Positions 20,646 through 34,112 of a DNA stretch of 47,227 bases are shown here, one piece after another. Numbering within the stretch: the stretch's first letter is position 1; each line of letters starts with the position of its first letter. Source of the stretch: an uncultured bacterium. GTDB lineage: Bacteria; Bacillota_I; Bacilli_A; RFN20; CAG-826. The notes below the pieces were generated by a model. It did no database searches, was not told the DNA's origin, and was given only the letters and a program-made list of their open reading frames with translations. The stretch is taken from assembly GCA_949288485.1 (NCBI GenBank), contig CASEKC010000009.1, positions 1-47,227 on the forward strand, given 5' to 3'. Made by a program: the position numbers and the translations under genes.

Positions 20646-20701
20646 GCACTAAAAACTTTTTATAGCACAATAAACTTTTTGTCGCACTAAAAACTTTTTA
20701 T
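20646..20701 (-). repeat. Short array of a GTGC-containing repeat, 19-bp spacing
   Basis: On the minus strand AAAAAGTTTTTAGTGC-type units recur three times with 19-bp spacing. The core TTTAGTGCGA is shared with the 33-bp arrays near 28.9 and 32.0 kb. It lies just 3' of the truncated hsdS. Confidence 0.6.
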
Positions 20702-20747
20702 CTTTTTTGAGAAAAAATCTTGCAATTAAGAGGGTTTCAATCAAAAT

Positions 20748-21275
20748 TTATTTTTTATTGATAAATTTCAATTTATCGACCTGTTCAACTAAAGAAGCAA
20801 ATTCATTTTGTAGCTCTAATGGAGCATTAATTATTTGGTAATCAAGAACAACATCATCTCTAATGGCGGGATAACTTGCACCCGTGGTCAATTTGACCAT
20901 AGAATCGGTAAAATCATCCGAGATAATGTTGTACATTAAATAATATGGATTACATTTTTTAGCTCGCAACACACAAAAGCCACTTGAACCAACGTACCCG
21001 TAATCATTTCCTTGATACAAAGCAACATTTTTTAGATTTGGTCGAACCGTTGACACTAATATATCATTATTTTTTAAACATTGCTGAGCTCTTGATGGTG
21101 CGTCTTTCAATGCATATCTAGTAGAAGAAATAATAGTATTTGTCTTGTTGTCTATAGATGATATATCAATGTATTCGAATTTCTCATCTAGTTTATAATT
21201 TTTCTTTGCAGACTGTTTATTTAAGTCTACAAGAGATCTAATTTTAATTGTTTCGAAAGATTTACTAAGAAACAT
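20748..21275 (-). pseudogene. hsdS: Half-length type I restriction specificity protein (HsdS)
   Basis: 175 aa containing one target-recognition domain (FETIKIRSLVDLNKQS ... TGASYPAIRDDVV) and the conserved exit helix (LELQNEFASLVEQVDKLK). Normal HsdS proteins have two such domains and about 400 residues. There is no hsdM or hsdR nearby; the intact type I operon is 20 kb away. The gene may be a remnant, a half-subunit acting as a dimer, or a silent donor for recombination with the hsdS at the window's end. Its 5' end abuts a truncated acetyltransferase on the other strand, which suggests insertion. Confidence 0.7.
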
Positions 21276-23074: not shown

Positions 23075-23245
23075 ATAACTAAATACCCTTTTTATTTTAG
23101 ATATATAGAATAAATTATAAGAAATAAATGTCAATTTATTTCTTGTTTAATTAGCTAAATATGTGGTATTTAATTAAAAAATGATAAAAAATATCAAAAA
23201 ATTATTTATTTAAGTGATTTAAATCTTGCAATGTAAATAATTGAA

Positions 23246-23363
23246 TTTCACGAAAATGAAAAATCTTTTTGTTCAAAATTTCACGAAAATGAAAAATCTT
23301 TTTATTCAAAAATTCCCGAAAATGAAAAATCTTTAAGGCTCAAAATACACGAAAATGAAAAAT
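23246..23363. repeat. Array of 33-bp repeats, type B (CACGAAAATGAAAAATC)
   Basis: Units begin at 23246, 23279, 23312 and 23345, an exact 33-bp period; the last is partial. The conserved part is CACGAAAATGAAAAATCTTT followed by a TTCAAAA stretch. There is no spacer between units. It lies between the permease and the broken ppx gene. Because 33 is divisible by three, one frame reads ENEKS-type repeats without a stop, but there is no start codon. Confidence 0.9.
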
Positions 23364-23409
23364 GTTAATTATTTTAAATATGTAAAACGAGATTTAAAAA
23401 TATATGGAT

Positions 23410-26688: not shown

Positions 26689-27495
26689 ATGAATATTTCA
26701 ACAACAAATATTATTATAACGATTATTGGTTTTACGATTATATTTTTAGGGAATTTACTTGGTGCAGGATTAATTTTCTTTTTTAAAAAAGATATTAATA
26801 AAAAATTAAATACCATCTTTTTAGGATTTGCTAGTGGAATCATGGTTGCTGCATCTATTTTTTCGCTTATTTTACCATCATTAGAAAGTGAATCATTAAC
26901 TAACTATGGTGATTTTAAATTTGTTCCAGCAGTAGTTGGTTTTCTTTTAGGAGGATTATTTTTATTTTTAATTGATAAAATTATTCCCCATTTTCATAAA
27001 GGAACAAATGAAGAAGAAGGTGTTAAATCGAAATTTTCTAAATCAACTAAATTATTTTTAGCAATGACTATTCATAATATTCCTGAAGGATTAGCTGTTG
27101 GTTTTTCTTTTGGAGGAGCTTTATTAATTAATAATGATAGTGCTTTTATTGCTTCTTTAATGCTTGCTATAGGTATGGCAATACAAAATTTTCCAGAAGG
27201 AGCAGCCGTTACACTCCCTTTAAAAGAAACAACTAATAGTAAAGGAAAAGCTTTTTTATATGGATCTTTAAGTGGGATAGTTGAACCTATATTTGCTCTT
27301 ATTGGTTTCTTTTTAGCTGCGGAATTATCTTTTTTAGAACCATATTTATTATCTTTTGCAGCTGGAGCAATGATTTATGTAGTTATTGAAGATTTAATTC
27401 CGGATGCTCATTTATCTAAAAACCCACATTATGGAACTTGGTCAGCATTAATAGGTTTTTCTTTAATGATGGTTTTAGATGTTGCCTTAGGTTAA
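26689..27495 (+). CDS. ZIP-family metal transporter
   Basis: 268 aa with about eight membrane helices. The metal-binding helix motifs MTIHNIPEGLAVG and GMAIQNFPEGAAVTLPL are hallmarks of ZIP/ZupT proteins, which import zinc and other divalent metals. The His-containing loop between helices 3 and 4 (IIPHFHKG) is also present. Divergent from ppk, so the 166-bp gap holds both promoters. Only a weak ribosome site is visible. Confidence 0.92.
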   Translation: MNISTTNIIITIIGFTIIFLGNLLGAGLIFFFKKDINKKLNTIFLGFASGIMVAASIFSLILPSLESESLTNYGDFKFVPAVVGFLLGGLFLFLIDKIIPHFHKGTNEEEGVKSKFSKSTKLFLAMTIHNIPEGLAVGFSFGGALLINNDSAFIASLMLAIGMAIQNFPEGAAVTLPLKETTNSKGKAFLYGSLSGIVEPIFALIGFFLAAELSFLEPYLLSFAAGAMIYVVIEDLIPDAHLSKNPHYGTWSALIGFSLMMVLDVALG

Positions 27496-27676
27496 TAAAA
27501 TTCAATAAATAATATAAATAAAAGTAAATAAATAGTTAAAAAATAGTAAGTTTTTTATTAATTATTTAATAAATTAGTTAAAAAAATACATAAAATAAAT
27601 GTGCATATATATGTCACTATTTAAGCACATTTTTTATTTACAAAGATATCTTAAGATTTTAATATTTACTTACCTT

Positions 27677-28327
27677 ATGAAAAACTTAAATGACTTATTA
27701 ACATATGAGATTGGTGAATTTAATTACACCTTTAAAGATCTATTATTTGAACTTAATCTTAATTTAATAATAGATAATAATAATACTGATTTATATTATT
27801 TTTCTTTTCTAAACGAAAAAGAAACAATAATTAAATCAAAATTATTATCGTTTTCATTAACTAATTTTAATGTTTATGAAATATTAGTTAGTTTGAAAAA
27901 CTATTATCTATTAAATAAATTAGAATTAGTATCCTTAATTAATAATTATTCTTTAACTAATCTTTATTTTGACATTGAAGATATAGAAAATGAACATTTA
28001 TTTAATGAATATTTATCATCTATAAATCTTTATAAGATCTTTTTAAATCATAAAATTGATTTAAAAAGAATAAATGAAGAAGTAATAAATAATAAAGATG
28101 ATGATGAAGATAGTAGTAATATTACTAATAAGAGTAGTAACAACAATAAAACTAATAATACATTAAAATTAGAAAGAGTTATTGATTTATCATTTATTGA
28201 TAGATATGAGGACAATACTATTAATAACCATGTATCTTTAATTAACTTAATTAAAAATAGAGTAATAAATAATTTAATAAAACTTAAACGTTACAAATCT
28301 TTACTATTATTTATATATGATTTTTAA
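27677..28327 (+). CDS. Hypothetical Asn/Leu-rich protein
   Basis: 216 aa from ATG 27677; the frame extends 26 codons upstream through a hydrophobic stretch, but neither start has a clear ribosome site. No domain is recognised. It has a run of Asp/Asn/Ser (DDDEDSSNITNKSSNNNK) dividing two Leu/Ile/Asn-rich helical halves, and no signal peptide if the shorter start is used. It might be a rapidly evolving regulator, but there is no evidence for a function. Confidence 0.5.
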   Translation: MKNLNDLLTYEIGEFNYTFKDLLFELNLNLIIDNNNTDLYYFSFLNEKETIIKSKLLSFSLTNFNVYEILVSLKNYYLLNKLELVSLINNYSLTNLYFDIEDIENEHLFNEYLSSINLYKIFLNHKIDLKRINEEVINNKDDDEDSSNITNKSSNNNKTNNTLKLERVIDLSFIDRYEDNTINNHVSLINLIKNRVINNLIKLKRYKSLLLFIYDF

Positions 28328-28383: not shown

Positions 28384-28863
28384 ATGGAAAAAGAAATTAA
28401 TAATACTAATAATAAATATTTAAGAAGATATATGATTCTTTCAATTATATATGCTTCATTAGCATTAATTGCAGGTGTTTTTTATCGAGAATTTACTAAA
28501 TTTAATAATTTTAGTAGTGAAACAACTCTTTCACTTATTCATACTCATTATTTTGTTTTAGGGATGTTTTTCTTTTTAATTCTTTTATTATTAGAAAAGA
28601 GTTTTAGTTTTAGTAGTAAAAATGATAATACTAATAAAAAAGTTGGTATTAGTATTATCCTTTATAATATTGGATTAAACTTAACTACTATAATGTTATT
28701 AGTTAGAGGTATTTTCGAAGTAATTTCAAAAGAGGAAATTACTTCGAAAATAAATGGTGTAATAAGTGGAGTAGCAGGAATAGGACATATCTTACTAGGA
28801 GTATTTTTAATCCTTATTTTAATCTTTATATTTATTGATGTATTTAAAAAGAAAAAGATTTAA
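28384..28863 (+). CDS. Four-helix membrane protein, DUF2871 family
   Basis: 159 aa with four membrane helices. The motif LIHTHYFVLGMFFFLILLLL in helix 2 and the GHILLGVFLIL pattern in helix 4 match DUF2871 proteins of Bacillota. The His pair in helix 2 might bind a metal or haem; the function is not known. AAGGAG at 28364-28369 and AAAGAGA closer to the ATG serve as ribosome site. Confidence 0.72.
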   Translation: MEKEINNTNNKYLRRYMILSIIYASLALIAGVFYREFTKFNNFSSETTLSLIHTHYFVLGMFFFLILLLLEKSFSFSSKNDNTNKKVGISIILYNIGLNLTTIMLLVRGIFEVISKEEITSKINGVISGVAGIGHILLGVFLILILIFIFIDVFKKKKI

Positions 28864-28870
28864 ATAAATA

Positions 28871-28982
28871 GGTCTTAAAATATATAAAAGTCATTTGAAA
28901 TTTAGTGCGAAAGTAGATAAAAGTCGCTATGATTTTAGTGCGAAACTCCTAAAAACTCCCTTTATTTTTAGTGCGAAAAACA
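28871..28982. repeat. Array of 33-bp repeats, type A, left of the TOTE-like gene
   Basis: Units start at 28901, 28934 and 28967 (exact 33-bp period), each beginning TTTAGTGCGAAA and continuing with a variable AT-rich part around TAAAA-GTC or ACTC; a degenerate unit precedes at 28871. The same unit forms the array at 31949-32094. Confidence 0.88.
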
Positions 28983-28995
28983 ATATTTATTCAAT

Positions 28996-29021
28996 AAAAA
29001 TGCGATAATTATCGTATTTTT
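28996..29021. terminator. Palindromic terminator
   Basis: AAAAATGCGATAATTATCGT followed by a T-run: the same GCGATAATTATCG core as the terminator at 4713-4728. It probably ends the DUF2871 transcript after the repeat array. Confidence 0.6.
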
Positions 29022-29060
29022 TAGATATAATTAAAGAAATTTAATTTTTAATAATAATTT

Positions 29061-29101
29061 ATCACAAAAGTTAAAAATAAAATGCCTCAAAAGTTAAAAG
29101 T
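29061..29101 (+). repeat. 41-bp repeat containing AAAATGCCTC, left copy
   Basis: Matches 33522-33562 in the same orientation at 32 of 41 positions, with ATAAAATGCCTC / GTAAAATGCCTC as the shared heart. It brackets the TOTE-like gene and the DUF4143 ATPase together with the right copy. Confidence 0.6.
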
Positions 29102-29234
29102 GTAAATTATAAAAATGATAAAAAAGTTATGTAAAATTATTTATCAATGATATACAAAGTTTTTTAAAAAACCTTAAAAAATTAAACAAATTTTATTTAA
29201 AAACTGATAAATTCTCATCTTTTAGCATTTACAT

Positions 29235-29250
29235 TGATATAATGTAGATA
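29235..29250 (+). promoter_or_regulatory. Extended -10 promoter giving a leaderless transcript
   Basis: TGATATAAT (extended -10 TGnTATAAT, 29235-29243) ends 6 bp before the ATG at 29250. Transcription would begin at or next to the start codon and there is no ribosome site, so the mRNA is probably leaderless. Confidence 0.55.
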
Positions 29251-31937
29251 TGAATTATGACAATCTTTCAAAAGAAACTTTAATTCGTGAAATAGAATCT
29301 TTAAAAGAAGAAATCAAAAGACTTCAATCTTTATTGACATTAAATAATATAAATTTTACTAAAGAAGAAATTCCGGAGTTTAATTTTTCTTTAGAAGAAA
29401 AAATCGCATTATATAGTGAGTATTTCAAAGGAAATCCAAACTATGTAGCTGAACAATTTGAAAAAAACGGCAATAAATTTTATTCTTTGGTTTGTGAAAA
29501 TAAATTTTCTTCCTTATGTAATATTAAAGAAGTTAAATGTAAAGATTGTAGAAAGCAGAAATTTGTAAAATACGATGACAATATCGTTTTAAATCAATTG
29601 AAAGGAACAAAACAATACGGCATATATCCTTTAATAAATGATAAATGTAATTTTATTGTTGTTGATTTTGATGAAAGTAATTTCAAAGAAACCGCAATAG
29701 CATTTAAAAATAACTCTTTAAAATATAATGTTGATGTCGCTATTGAATTATCTCAATCAGGAAATGGAGCTCATGCTTGGATTTTCTTTTCTGAAGAAAT
29801 AGATGCAAAAATTGCTAGAAAACTTTGTTTTTATTTATTAGAAGATTGTTTCGAAGAAGGGAAATTGGATAATTTAAATTCTTTTGATCGTTTAATTCCA
29901 TCCCAAGATTATTCACCATTAAATGGATTTGGAAATTTAATAGCCCTTCCATTAAGTGGAAAGAAAAGCAAAAATAACAATACAACTATTTTTGTAAGAA
30001 ATGATTTCACTCCTTTTCAATTAAATGAACAATTTTCTTATTTAAAAACAATAAATAAATTAAATAAAAAAGAAGTAGAATCAATTATTAAAAATTTTGA
30101 TGAAAATAAAAATAAACTATTAAATTTAACGAATTTAAAAATAAATAACACTGATTTTAACAACGATTTTACAATTTATTTAAATTCAATGATATCTGTT
30201 TATAAAAGTCAAATTTCTAAAAAGGCATTAAATTTCCTCAAAAAAATTGGGTCAATTAATAATCACGAATATTTTGAAAGACAAGCTAAAAGATTATCTA
30301 CCTATAATATATCAAGATTTTTAAGACTTTATCATGAAGATGATGTAATTATTAAATTACCAATTGGTGTTTTAAATTATCTTTTAGAAGTTTTTGAAAA
30401 AAAGAAAATTAAATATCGATTAAAAGATTCAAGAACTAAAGGCGAATCAATTGATATAACATTTAATGGCGAACTTCATGAAAAACAAAAAGAAGCTCTC
30501 GATAAATTATTGAATAATGAAAGAGGAATTCTTTTAGCTAATACTGCTTTTGGAAAAACAGTAGTTGCTATTGCTTTAATCTGTGCTTTAAAAATAAATA
30601 CAGCTATTTTAGTTGATAAAATAAATCTAATTGAACAATGGAAACAAAAAATTAAAGAATTTACTATATTTGATGAAAATAATAAGATTGGTGAATATAC
30701 TTCAACAAAAAGAAAACTTAGTAATTTTATAGATATTATTTCTGTAAAATCTTTAAATTCTCCTGATATTGATGAAAATATTTTTGAAAATTATGGATTA
30801 GTAATAATTGATGAAGTGCATCATTTAGCAGCACAAAGTTTTGAAAATGCAATTAAAAAATTTAATGCAAAAAGAATATATGGTTTAACCGCAACATTAA
30901 AAAGAAGTGATGGTAATGAAGGAATTATTAAAAAATGTATAGGTGATGTAATCTTTGAACATTTTGATGAAAAAAGTGATTTTTTACGTATTTTACATCC
31001 AATAATAACTGGTTTTAATGCAGATTTAAATAGTTTAACTATTAATGGAAGAGTTGATTATACATCCTTATTAAATGAAATGATTAAAGATGAAAAACGA
31101 AATGAACTTATTTTAAATCGTATTAGTGAAAATATAACAAAAAAGAATATTTTAGTACTTACTGAAAGAATTGAGCATGCTCAATTCTTATATGAAAAGA
31201 TAAAAGAAAAATATAAGGATGAATATATTTATAATATAAATGGATCTTCTTCAAAAAAAGAATTAAAGATTTTTCAAGAAGAAATAAATTCATTATCACT
31301 AAATAAAAAAATAACTATTATTTCAACCGGTAAATTTATAGGTGAAGGATTTGATTTAGACAGATTAGAAGTTTTATATATAACTATGCCTATTAAATGG
31401 GAAGGAACTTTACAACAATATACTGGCCGTTTACATCGTCAAAAAGAAGGAAAAGAAAAAGTAGAAGTTTATGATTTTGTTGATTTAAATATTCCTATTT
31501 TTGAAAATATGTTTAATATTCGTTTAAAAAAATATAAAAAATTACTTTATAAAAACGAAGATAATATTAATGAAGAATTTATTTTTGATAAGGAAACTTA
31601 TTTTAAAAAATTAAAAGAAGATTTATCTAATGCAAATAGCAATATAAGATTTATTATAGGTTTAGGATATTCAAAAATTATTAATCATTTAATTAGTTTT
31701 ACTTCTAAAAATGCAAAAGTGTATTTATATACTAATTATGAATATGAGATAAATAGAGAAGCAAAAGTATTAAATTTAGATAAAAAATCATTAATAAATG
31801 CTATTATTATCGATGATTCAATTATTTATATAGGATCTTTAAATCCATTTGTAAGTAATAATAGTGAAGATGATTCGATTATATGTGTTTATGATAAGTT
31901 ACTTATTCAAAAGTATATTAATTTTATAAAGATTTAA
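29250..31937 (+). CDS. TOTE-type primase / SF2 helicase / PLD-like fusion protein
   Basis: 895 aa in four parts. (1) A coiled coil at 5-28. (2) An archaeo-eukaryotic-primase-like domain: Cys knuckle C82, C90, C97, C100, metal motif VVDFDE (D139, D141), SGNGAHAWIFF (170-180) and FGNLIALPLSG (227-236). (3) An SF2 helicase: NTAFGKT Walker A (431-437), DEVH (521-524), LTATLKRSD (546-554), STGKFIGEGFD and QYTGRLHR arginine finger (723-730). (4) A PLD-like C-terminal fold with IIIDDSIIYIGSLNPF, where the usual HKD His is absent. This order is that of TOTE conflict-system primase-helicases, thought to act in mobile-element or phage conflict. Flanked on both sides by 33-bp repeat arrays. No accessory gene is co-transcribed. 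Confidence 0.8.
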   Translation: MNYDNLSKETLIREIESLKEEIKRLQSLLTLNNINFTKEEIPEFNFSLEEKIALYSEYFKGNPNYVAEQFEKNGNKFYSLVCENKFSSLCNIKEVKCKDCRKQKFVKYDDNIVLNQLKGTKQYGIYPLINDKCNFIVVDFDESNFKETAIAFKNNSLKYNVDVAIELSQSGNGAHAWIFFSEEIDAKIARKLCFYLLEDCFEEGKLDNLNSFDRLIPSQDYSPLNGFGNLIALPLSGKKSKNNNTTIFVRNDFTPFQLNEQFSYLKTINKLNKKEVESIIKNFDENKNKLLNLTNLKINNTDFNNDFTIYLNSMISVYKSQISKKALNFLKKIGSINNHEYFERQAKRLSTYNISRFLRLYHEDDVIIKLPIGVLNYLLEVFEKKKIKYRLKDSRTKGESIDITFNGELHEKQKEALDKLLNNERGILLANTAFGKTVVAIALICALKINTAILVDKINLIEQWKQKIKEFTIFDENNKIGEYTSTKRKLSNFIDIISVKSLNSPDIDENIFENYGLVIIDEVHHLAAQSFENAIKKFNAKRIYGLTATLKRSDGNEGIIKKCIGDVIFEHFDEKSDFLRILHPIITGFNADLNSLTINGRVDYTSLLNEMIKDEKRNELILNRISENITKKNILVLTERIEHAQFLYEKIKEKYKDEYIYNINGSSSKKELKIFQEEINSLSLNKKITIISTGKFIGEGFDLDRLEVLYITMPIKWEGTLQQYTGRLHRQKEGKEKVEVYDFVDLNIPIFENMFNIRLKKYKKLLYKNEDNINEEFIFDKETYFKKLKEDLSNANSNIRFIIGLGYSKIINHLISFTSKNAKVYLYTNYEYEINREAKVLNLDKKSLINAIIIDDSIIYIGSLNPFVSNNSEDDSIICVYDKLLIQKYINFIKI

Positions 31938-31948
31938 ATCTTTTGATA

Positions 31949-32094
31949 GTTAGTGCGAAAATATTTAAAAGTCACTTGATTTTTAGTGCAGCAAATATAA
32001 AAACTCACTTTAATTTTAGTGCGAATACATACAAAGGTCGCTTCTAATTTAGTGCGAAACATATAAAAACTCGCTTGATTTTTAGTGCCAAAAA
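31949..32094. repeat. Array of 33-bp repeats, type A, between the TOTE-like gene and the DUF4143 ATPase
   Basis: Units at 31949, 31982, 32015 and 32048 plus a partial at 32081, all exactly 33 bp apart. Consensus: TTTAGTGCGAAA, about four variable bases, TAAAAACTCGCTTGATT. The array begins 12 bp after the TOTE-like stop and ends 43 bp before the next start. Confidence 0.92.
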
Positions 32095-32108: not shown

Positions 32109-32114
32109 TATAAT
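32109..32114 (+). promoter_or_regulatory. Candidate -10 of the DUF4143 ATPase gene
   Basis: TATAAT 24 bp before the ATG; the -35 region would fall within the last partial repeat of the array, so the array may modulate this promoter. Confidence 0.4.
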
Positions 32115-32137: not shown

Positions 32138-33496
32138 ATGTATTTCAAAAGAAAAATTGATAAAGAATTAGAAAATTGGTTAAAAGTAAATGGTCACTCA
32201 CCAGCTTTAATTACAGGTGTTAGACAATGTGGGAAAACGAGTAGTATAAAACGTTTTGCTAATGATAATTTTAAAAATGTTGTTTACATAAATTTTTGGG
32301 AAACACCGAAAATGAAGCAAGCATTCGAAGAATCATTAAATGTTGATGACATAATTTCTACACTTACTTATCTTAATAGTAATTTTAAATTTATTCCTTA
32401 TGAAACGGTAATTATTTTTGATGAAATACAAGATTGTGCTAAAGCCCGTTTATCTTTAAAAAGCTTTAAAGAAGATAAAAGATTTGAAGTGATTGCTAGT
32501 GGATCTTATGTTGGTTTAAATATTGAAAATAAAGGAAAAGCAAATACGCCAAAACCTAATGGATCTGAAGATGTTTTTACAATGAAAACTTTAGATTTTG
32601 AAGAATTTCTTTGGACAATTGGATATGATGAAGATAAAATAAATTTTTTAGTCGATTGTATAAAAGAGAAAAAGAAAATCCCTAATTTAATACATAAAAC
32701 GATGAAAGAATTGTACAAAACCTATATATCTATTGGGGGATATCCAGAAGTTATATCTAGTTTTTTAAATAATAATAAAAACTATAATATAGCCTTTAAA
32801 AAGATTAGTAGTTTAATTTTTGATATAAAAGGCGATCCTTTAAAAAGAACTGATGAAAATGGCAAGCCTCTTTATACTCAATATGAAATAGCAAGAATAC
32901 AAAACTCCTTTGATTTAATACCTAGTTTTTTATTAAAAGATAATAAAAAATATGTTGTTTCAAAAATCGATGGAGGGAATGGATTACAAAAACAAGATGC
33001 AATAAATTATCTTGTTAATGCAAATTTAGTTTTTAAAGTTAACAATTTAACTAATCTTTCTCTTCCTTTAAAAAGTAGTGCTATCTTAAATGATTTTAAA
33101 TTATTTTATTCTGATATTGGTCTTTTTATAGGAAATAGTGGGTTTGATACTATCGAGGGATTAATGAATGATACTTTAGGAATGAATAAAGGTTATTTAT
33201 ATGAAGCAATAGTTGCAGATAATCTTTTTAAAGCTAATATTCCTTTATATTATTTTAAAAAGAGTAGTGGTTTAGAAGTTGATTTTATTATCTCTTATCA
33301 AGGTTATCCAACATTAATCGAAGTAAAAGCATATAATGGAAATGTTAAATCTTCTAAAACTATATTAAATAATCCAAATCATTATGGAAAAGCAAGATTA
33401 ATTAAATTTGGTGATTATAATATTGGTTTTAGTGATAATTTTGTTACATTACCTTATTATTTAATTTTTGCATTAGATAGAGTTTCGTTATTTTAA
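32138..33496 (+). CDS. AAA_14 / DUF4143 ATPase
   Basis: 452 aa. Walker A GVRQCGKT near residue 30 and Walker B VIIFDEIQD near 95 form an archaeal-type AAA ATPase domain; the C-terminal DUF4143 part ends in a PD-(D/E)xK-like core (LEVDFIISYQGYPTLIEVKA). This family is widespread, often multicopy and variable between strains, with unproven roles in defence or mobile-element biology. AAGG lies 9 nt before the ATG. Preceded by a 33-bp repeat array and followed by an inverted repeat. Confidence 0.85.
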   Translation: MYFKRKIDKELENWLKVNGHSPALITGVRQCGKTSSIKRFANDNFKNVVYINFWETPKMKQAFEESLNVDDIISTLTYLNSNFKFIPYETVIIFDEIQDCAKARLSLKSFKEDKRFEVIASGSYVGLNIENKGKANTPKPNGSEDVFTMKTLDFEEFLWTIGYDEDKINFLVDCIKEKKKIPNLIHKTMKELYKTYISIGGYPEVISSFLNNNKNYNIAFKKISSLIFDIKGDPLKRTDENGKPLYTQYEIARIQNSFDLIPSFLLKDNKKYVVSKIDGGNGLQKQDAINYLVNANLVFKVNNLTNLSLPLKSSAILNDFKLFYSDIGLFIGNSGFDTIEGLMNDTLGMNKGYLYEAIVADNLFKANIPLYYFKKSSGLEVDFIISYQGYPTLIEVKAYNGNVKSSKTILNNPNHYGKARLIKFGDYNIGFSDNFVTLPYYLIFALDRVSLF

Positions 33497-33662: not shown

Positions 33663-34112
33663 TTATTTTGTTTTATTTTTAATTAATTTTTCTATTAATG
33701 CTTCTTTTAAAACTTTAGAAAAATTAATATTATTCTTTTTAGCAAGTTTATCTAAATAAATAGGAATAGTTAAAGTCTTTTTAATAGATTTAGTAAAATG
33801 TTCTTCAATATATTTATCTATATCAACTGCAACTATTTGTATTGATATATCCTTATCATCTATATCATTACTATTAATATCTAAATCCTTTTTAACTTTA
33901 GCTATATCTATATCATTAGCATTAGATGGTAATGCAATTTCATTACCATCTAATCTTTCATCATAGATATAGCTAGCTAAACAGTCTATTGCCATATCAT
34001 AAGCTTCATCATAATTACTTCCCCATGTAGCAAGATAATTTAAATCGGTAAAAAATACTGATATTTGATTCTCTTTTTCTTTAATAAATACTGCTGGATA
34101 TTTAGTTAACAT
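33663..34112 (-). CDS. Orphan HicB-like antitoxin
   Basis: 149 aa. The N-terminal half has the HicB fold pattern (YPAVFIKEKENQISVFFTDL, then GSNYDEAYDMAIDCLASYI and ALPS); the C-terminal 40 residues form a ribbon-helix-helix DNA-binding domain (IPIYLDKLAKKNNINFSKVL). HicB normally neutralises the HicA mRNA-cutting toxin and represses their operon. No HicA-like frame lies within 200 bp on either side, so this copy stands alone. The middle is unusually long and Asp-rich for the family. Confidence 0.78.
   Translation of the reverse strand: MLTKYPAVFIKEKENQISVFFTDLNYLATWGSNYDEAYDMAIDCLASYIYDERLDGNEIALPSNANDIDIAKVKKDLDINSNDIDDKDISIQIVAVDIDKYIEEHFTKSIKKTLTIPIYLDKLAKKNNINFSKVLKEALIEKLIKNKTK

What the first reader, a model, noticed from the sequence alone, without database searches (positions are those of the whole stretch)
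28871..32094. 33-bp direct-repeat arrays on both sides of a TOTE-like gene
Arrays at 28901-28982 and 31949-32094 share the unit TTTAGTGCGAAA...TAAAA(C/G)TC(G/A)CTTGATT with an exact 33-bp period, i.e. about three helical turns, and hug a primase-helicase-PLD gene (12 bp after its stop). A third array at 23246-23363 has the same 33-bp period and a similar layout (TTT..CGAAAAT.AAAAA.TC.TTT) but a different sequence, and a 19-bp-spaced relative lies at 20646-20701. Iterated sites at helical spacing suggest cooperative binding of a protein, perhaps the neighbouring ATPase or primase-helicase. I know of no described function.
Basis: partly seen in the sequence, partly recalled or inferred. Interest (0 to 1): 0.7.

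Follow-up and report, generated by a model that had tools for sequence, protein, structure and literature searches.

The report
Self-marking promoter arrays of ATPase-nuclease genes
The repeats are real, and they are a row of docking sites that a very common but uncharacterised family of ATPase-nuclease genes (filed as a phage-defence candidate) carries in its own promoter across many phyla, each gene with its own version, so the likely job is that the protein binds and controls its own gene.

Summary
The two 33-bp arrays are real and far from chance. They belong to the DUF4143 gene (AAA_14-DUF4143, PADLOC PDC-S01), not to the TOTE gene. In 26 genomes of the genus, 75 of 94 such genes have direct repeats within 200 bp of the start; at the stricter cut-off it is 62/94 against 3/113 control genes. 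Each paralog with an array in the window's genome has its own unit. Spacing follows protein subclass: 31-34 bp (I), 23 bp (II), palindromes mostly 65-85 bp apart (III). Across Bacteroidota, Bacillota, Spirochaetota, Verrucomicrobiota, Coriobacteriia and an archaeon, the best repeat period is 31-34 bp in 82/90 subclass-I homologs but 9/207 neighbouring genes. Units sit on the core promoter; in Bacteroidota the -7 box often lies between the last two. A confident model shows a STAND/AAA+ ATPase, a winged helix and a PD-(D/E)XK nuclease. Unit sequence tracks the winged helix more than any other segment. Best reading: cooperative cognate operators for autoregulation (binding and regulation inferred, not assayed). 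In a related genome the same flanking genes and left array precede a subclass-II DUF4143 gene instead of TOTE, so the TOTE-flanking layout looks like gene turnover. I found no earlier report in the literature held.

The parts
28868..28983 (+). left 33-bp array, about 3.5 units (TTTAGTGCGAAAnnnnnTAAAAnTCnCTTnATT)
   Evidence: 73% identical over 234 bp, with the parts to 29101, to the G016:C19 intergenic region
29000..29022 (+). short inverted repeat followed by a T-run (GCGATAATTATCGTATTTTTT), terminator-like, conserved between window and G016
   Evidence: function inferred only
29048..29099 (+). weak 23-bp array of the subclass-II DUF4143 type
   Evidence: TRF, period 23; homologous to the 23-bp array before a subclass-II DUF4143 gene in G016; z only 2.3 on its own
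29250..31937 (+). TOTE-type gene: archaeo-eukaryotic primase plus superfamily-2 helicase (895 aa)
   Evidence: Pfam PF22548 E=5e-65, PF04851; relatives elsewhere lack the arrays
31949..32094 (+). right 33-bp array, five units: proposed operator of the DUF4143 gene
32109..32114 (+). TATAAT, likely -10 box of the DUF4143 gene, 15 bp after the last repeat unit
   Evidence: TATAAT enriched before such genes
32138..33496 (+). DUF4143 gene (AAA_14-DUF4143, PDC-S01-type, 452 aa), proposed to encode the array-binding protein
   Evidence: Pfam and PADLOC; model pLDDT 92.3
32870..33109 (+). part coding for the winged helix (residues 245-324), proposed repeat-recognition domain
   Evidence: helices 248-266, 274-277, 282-294 and strands 298-304, 315-324; covariation peak
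33116..33493 (+). part coding for the PD-(D/E)XK domain (residues 327-452; E356, D382, E395-x-K397)
23244..23366 (.). orphan 33-bp array with another unit (TTCACGAAAATGAAAAATCTTTTT...), upstream of an amino-acid permease on the minus strand
   Evidence: no DUF4143 remnant nearby
26689..28327 (+). ZIP transporter gene and next gene: left synteny markers shared with G016:C19 (94% and 72%)
33663..34112 (-). right synteny marker shared with G016:C19 (77%)

Best explanation
The arrays are cognate binding sites (operators) of AAA_14-DUF4143 (PDC-S01) proteins. Each gene carries in its own core promoter a short row of identical sites, set at a fixed pitch for its subclass (32-33 bp, about three helical turns, for subclass I; 23 bp, about two turns, for subclass II). 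The protein is a STAND/AAA+ ATPase joined to a winged helix and a PD-(D/E)XK nuclease domain. It most likely binds its own array through the winged helix, with protomers lined up on one face of the DNA and touching each other, and so autoregulates its gene; repression is more likely than activation because units straddle the -10/-7 box. Shown here: arrays, their pitch per subclass, spread over phyla, promoter position, paralog-specific units, covariation with the winged helix. Inferred: binding, cooperativity, sign of regulation, and what the ATPase and nuclease do. In the window the right array is the DUF4143 operator; the left array and the weak 23-bp array sit at a spot where a related genome has a subclass-II DUF4143 gene, and TOTE now occupies that position.
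For: Genus: repeats with z>6 upstream of 62/94 DUF4143 genes against 3/113 other genes (Fisher p=6e-25). Beyond the genus: best period 31-34 bp in 82/90 subclass-I homologs against 9/207 neighbouring genes (p=8e-53), loci having been picked by protein sequence only; two of the ten strongest 'control' hits proved to be DUF4143 genes themselves. Pitch follows subclass: II 23/24/46 bp in 23 of 24, I 31-34 or about twice that in most. Seven paralogs of the own genome have mutually unrelated units, while orthologs in other genomes share the TTTAGTGC unit. Promoter position: array end to start codon, median 31 bp; TAnnTTTG within 75 bp of the start in 20/28 Bacteroidota loci (1.9 expected), often between the last two units; TATAAT within 60 bp in 51/131 others (17.6 expected). 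Structure: pLDDT 92, winged helix at 248-324. Covariation of unit with protein peaks in windows 241-294 in 54/60 bootstraps; table of unit versus recognition segment.
Against: No binding or expression data. Covariation is weak in size (partial rho at most 0.14) and the sequences are related. About a fifth of genus members show no repeats (6 of 16 subclass III, and the short ~412-aa group). Orphan arrays exist without a cognate gene (23244-23366; G016:C19 left array; G008:C48), so arrays may persist or act without the protein. Start codons were assigned mechanically. Regulation sign rests on position only.
Confidence: 0.72

Rival explanations
1. The array is a cis-acting replication or segregation site and the ATPase an initiator or segregation factor, as archaeal Orc1/Cdc6 binds origin recognition boxes beside its own gene, or ParR binds the parC iterons before parM.
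For: AAA+ ATPase with winged helix, cognate repeats next to the gene, family-specific unit; folds near Orc1/Cdc6 and DnaA. Haloarchaeal Orc/Cdc6 families show the same linkage specificity with their ORBs (PMC3528665).
Against: Many paralogs per 1.3-Mb bacterial genome, patchy between species; sites sit on the core promoter; a PD-(D/E)XK nuclease domain; no Cdc6 or Rep family match.
Confidence: 0.08
2. The array beside TOTE is a true second operator: the neighbouring DUF4143 protein also controls TOTE, making a two-gene conflict module.
For: Same unit, phase and orientation before both genes and nowhere else in the genome; a TATAAT box also follows the left array.
Against: The left array with hairpin and 23-bp array is kept in G016:C19, before a subclass-II gene and without TOTE; it lies over 260 bp before the TOTE start with a terminator-like hairpin between; TOTE relatives lack it.
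Confidence: 0.2
3. The arrays are targets for insertion or exchange of DUF4143 modules, and the flanked TOTE gene is cargo of such an exchange; binding is not for regulation.
For: Window and G016 share both outer flanks but carry different cargo between them; orphan arrays occur; the window's locus reads as one array split by an insertion.
Against: Does not explain position on the core promoter, subclass-specific pitch, or covariation with the winged helix. Only one exchange locus was dissected.
Confidence: 0.12
4. Chance tandem duplication in AT-rich intergenic DNA.
For: The genome is 25% GC and has many weak tandem repeats.
Against: Shuffle and gene controls, recurrence at 32-33 bp in genomes up to 67% GC.
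Confidence: 0.01

Closest known systems
PDC-S01 (AAA_14-DUF4143, COG1373-type), phage-defence candidate of PADLOC
   Same: The window protein matches the PADLOC model at E=4e-111 and has the ATPase plus PD-(D/E)XK make-up reported for it (PMC12988326).
   Different: No promoter array is mentioned in the passages found on PDC-S01; defence activity is reported as unvalidated for most such candidates.
Archaeal Orc1/Cdc6 and origin recognition boxes
   Same: AAA+ plus winged helix; repeats beside the own gene; each protein family with its own repeat (PMC3528665).
   Different: Here the repeats lie on the core promoter of many dispersed bacterial paralogs and the protein ends in a nuclease domain.
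ParR-parC and plasmid iterons (autoregulating iterated sites; from general knowledge)
   Same: Short direct repeats at helical pitch in the promoter, bound cooperatively by the product of the locus.
   Different: The presumed binder is itself the ATPase-nuclease; no partner gene or replicon function seen.
Archaeal STAND-like ATPases 2qen and 2fna
   Same: Closest solved folds over residues 1-335 (Z 16.5 and 15.2).
   Different: Those matches do not cover the nuclease domain; no DNA site is known to me for them.
DUF234 ATPases (PF03008)
   Same: Sister ATPase family; about half of 24 loci also show promoter repeats.
   Different: Pitch is mostly 15 bp.

Membership tests
PDC-S01 / AAA_14-DUF4143 | AAA_14 and DUF4143 domains above Pfam cut-offs | tested here: met
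   71.3 bits (cut-off 27) and 78.3 bits (cut-off 28.1)
PDC-S01 / AAA_14-DUF4143 | match to PADLOC PDC-S01 models | tested here: met
   PDLC04786 E=3.9e-111 over residues 1-448
PDC-S01 / AAA_14-DUF4143 | intact Walker motifs and PD-(D/E)XK core | tested here: met
   K33, D95, E96, E356, E395, K397 invariant in 58 homologs, D382 in 51; C-terminal model matches many PD-(D/E)XK nucleases, best Z 7.9, moderate
PDC-S01 / AAA_14-DUF4143 | antiphage activity | not testable with these tools
   needs phage challenge
TOTE conflict system | AEP-TOTE primase domain with helicase | tested here: met
   PF22548 E=5e-65, ResIII and Helicase_C
TOTE conflict system | other system components and activity | not tested
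   outside the question
Orc1/Cdc6-ORB origins | cognate repeats adjacent to an AAA+ plus winged-helix gene | tested here: met
Orc1/Cdc6-ORB origins | Orc1/Cdc6 sequence family | tested here: not met
   Pfam scan gives AAA_14, DUF4143 and weak ATPase_2 only
Orc1/Cdc6-ORB origins | origin activity | not testable with these tools
   needs plasmid replication assay
CRISPR array | identical repeats separated by unique spacers of similar length, with cas genes | tested here: not met
   33-bp head-to-tail degenerate units; no cas gene among the ten genes scanned around the arrays apart from weak helicase matches

The most novel reading that the evidence does not exclude
The array is more than an operator: it is the built-in sensor of a one-gene defence. 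The ATPase-nuclease is parked as an ordered row on its own promoter, and an invader that disturbs or titrates it releases both the nuclease and the gene's expression. Every paralog uses its own array so that the many systems in one cell do not interfere.
Probability: 0.2. Interest if true: 0.9.

Novelty: new variant of a known kind. Interest (0 to 1): 0.76.

Why it matters
PDC-S01 is reported as the fourth most common defence system across prokaryotes, with validation pending (PMC12988326), and almost nothing is written on DUF4143 (one paper in the held library). A near-universal array of cognate sites in its own promoter gives the family its first specific, testable DNA ligand. It predicts a recognition code between the winged helix and the repeat unit, and it offers a sequence signature for finding and sorting members, orphan sites and exchanged loci.

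Tried and rejected
TOTE as the owner of the arrays: rejected. CRISPR or Rfam RNA: no Rfam match other than tRNAs in the window. Array 23244-23366 as operator of a DUF4143 gene in this genome: no second copy in the genome and no remnant in the window; its unit recurs at G008:C48 before a response-regulator gene. The first-reader comparison of the 19-bp array: not pursued beyond confirming that it is real. An alignment of all subclasses was too diverse for a collection scan; subclass I alone was used, so breadth outside the genus is shown for subclass I only. No solved structure of the family by single-sequence search. Foldseek and VIA matches of the C-terminal domain are moderate (best Z 7.9), so the nuclease assignment leans on motif and topology as well. 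Literature searches on DUF4143, COG1373, PDC-S01 and iterons with AAA ATPase found no report of the arrays; subscription journals and bioRxiv preprints are largely not held.

Full report
Observation. The two arrays are as described: TTTAGTGC units at an exact 33-bp step, three and a partial one before the TOTE gene and five between the TOTE stop and the next gene. Both exceed all 200 dinucleotide shuffles. The array at 23244-23366 has the same period and a different unit; the 19-bp array at 20646-20702 is real but could not be tied to the rest. The pattern is confined to this contig apart from one 2-mismatch single hit.

Which gene do the arrays go with? The genome has one TOTE gene but about ten DUF4143 genes. 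Looking upstream of the latter showed different tandem arrays directly before the start codons of several paralogs. Over 94 distinct DUF4143 genes from 26 genomes of the genus, 75 have direct repeats at z>3 and 62 at z>6 in the 200 bp before the start, against 6 and 3 of 113 other genes in the same stretches. Two full-length TOTE relatives in the genus have neither array nor DUF4143 gene beside them. So the arrays are a feature of the DUF4143 family.

Pitch and subclass. Sorting the proteins by their Walker motifs gives 31-34 bp (or about twice that) for subclass I, to which the window protein belongs, 23/24/46 bp for 23 of 24 subclass-II genes, and mostly 65-85 bp between palindromic sites for subclass III, where 6 of 16 show nothing. 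Within the window's genome the arrays of seven paralogs do not match each other. Orthologs of the window protein in other genomes carry the same TTTAGTGC unit.

Breadth. Subclass-I homologs found by protein sequence in reference genomes and viral contigs include Bacteroidota, Bacillota, Spirochaetota, Verrucomicrobiota, Coriobacteriia, Endomicrobium and Methanoplasma. Of 90 usable loci, 80 have repeats at z>3 and 82 have their best period at 31-34 bp, in genomes from 25 to 67% GC; among 207 neighbouring genes only 9 do. Of the ten strongest neighbouring 'control' hits, two are DUF4143 genes themselves. Named isolates show it too: a Segatella copri DSM 18205 plasmid gene has three clear units, a Bacteroides thetaiotaomicron plasmid gene two at 66 bp; Parabacteroides distasonis and Ruminococcus albus examples are weak (z 2.6 and 1.5). 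The sister family DUF234 shows promoter repeats too, mostly at 15 bp, in about half of 24 loci.

Position. The array ends a median 31 bp before the start codon. In Bacteroidota loci the -7 box TAnnTTTG is found in the last 75 bp in 20 of 28 (1.9 expected), in several lying between the last two units; elsewhere exact TATAAT is enriched (51 of 131 against 17.6). In the window TATAAT at 32109 follows the last unit by 15 bp. This is the place of an operator.

The protein. The model of the window protein is confident (pLDDT 92.3, pTM 0.91): AAA+ domain, winged helix at 248-324, then an alpha-beta-beta-beta-alpha-beta domain with E356, D382 and E395-x-K397. Closest solved folds over the first 335 residues are two archaeal STAND-like ATPases (Z 16.5 and 15.2), then CED-4 and plant NLRs; Orc1/Cdc6 near Z 10. 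The C-terminal domain alone matches many PD-(D/E)XK nucleases (Can1/Can2, McrC, DdmD, EndoMS) at moderate scores. PADLOC files the protein as PDC-S01; the literature calls PDC-S01 the fourth most common defence system with ATPase and PD-(D/E)XK parts and validation pending (PMC12988326).

Recognition. Pairwise similarity of repeat units was compared with protein similarity in sliding windows, correcting for overall identity. The highest partial correlation lies at residues 253-288, and in 54 of 60 bootstraps the top window falls within 241-294, the winged helix (first version). The effect is small (rho up to 0.14). The table behind it is suggestive: TGTGA units go with KxARNREYxG, CTTGAAAAAGTT with TAsKfaGSLQWI, TTTGCGTATnTCTC with DLYSSYEDALFWL, and the TTTAGTGC unit with GGNGLQKQDAINYL.

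The local puzzle. In genome G016 the same left flank (ZIP transporter 94%, next gene 72%) and right flank (77%) enclose [33-bp array][hairpin][23-bp array] followed by a subclass-II DUF4143 gene; the array region is 73% identical to the window over 234 bp. In the window TOTE, a second 33-bp array and the subclass-I gene stand there. The likely history is turnover of DUF4143 modules at one locus, leaving the left array; that the left array also controls TOTE is possible but less likely.

Mechanism. Shown: the arrays, pitch by subclass, taxonomic breadth, promoter position, paralog-specific units, and covariation with the winged helix. Inferred: the protein binds its own array, cooperatively and on one DNA face, and regulates its own gene, more likely by repression. 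The role of the ATPase and nuclease, and any link to defence, remain open.

Limits.

Noticed in passing
20646-20702 and 20748-21275: A 19-bp array (GCACTAAAAACTTTTTATA) just past the 3' end of a short HsdS-like gene (Methylase_S), about 150 bp after a tRNA-Glu gene; not linked to DUF4143.
   Followed up: partly
23244-23366: Orphan 33-bp array before an amino-acid permease; the same unit, two copies, lies before a response-regulator gene in genome G008 (contig C48), with no DUF4143 match in the stretches examined.
   Followed up: partly
L239-L262: DUF234 ATPase genes (PF03008) also carry promoter repeats, mostly with a 15-bp period, in about half of the loci.
   Followed up: partly
L025 (G000:C5:36887-37238) and L023 (G000:C6:10600-10698): Two broken DUF4143 genes in the window's genome; a 23-bp array lies about 550 bp from the second, as expected if orphan arrays are relics of lost genes.
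   Followed up: no
L088:3033-4376: A 447-aa gene not matched as DUF4143 has 12-bp repeats (ATTGGTGACA..) in its promoter.
   Followed up: no
L124:4220-4645: A 122-bp tandem repeat, 3.5 copies, about 0.9 kb before the TOTE relative of genome G022.
   Followed up: no
28384-28863: A DUF2871 membrane-protein gene is present between the flank genes and the left array in the window but not in the syntenic G016 locus.
   Followed up: no
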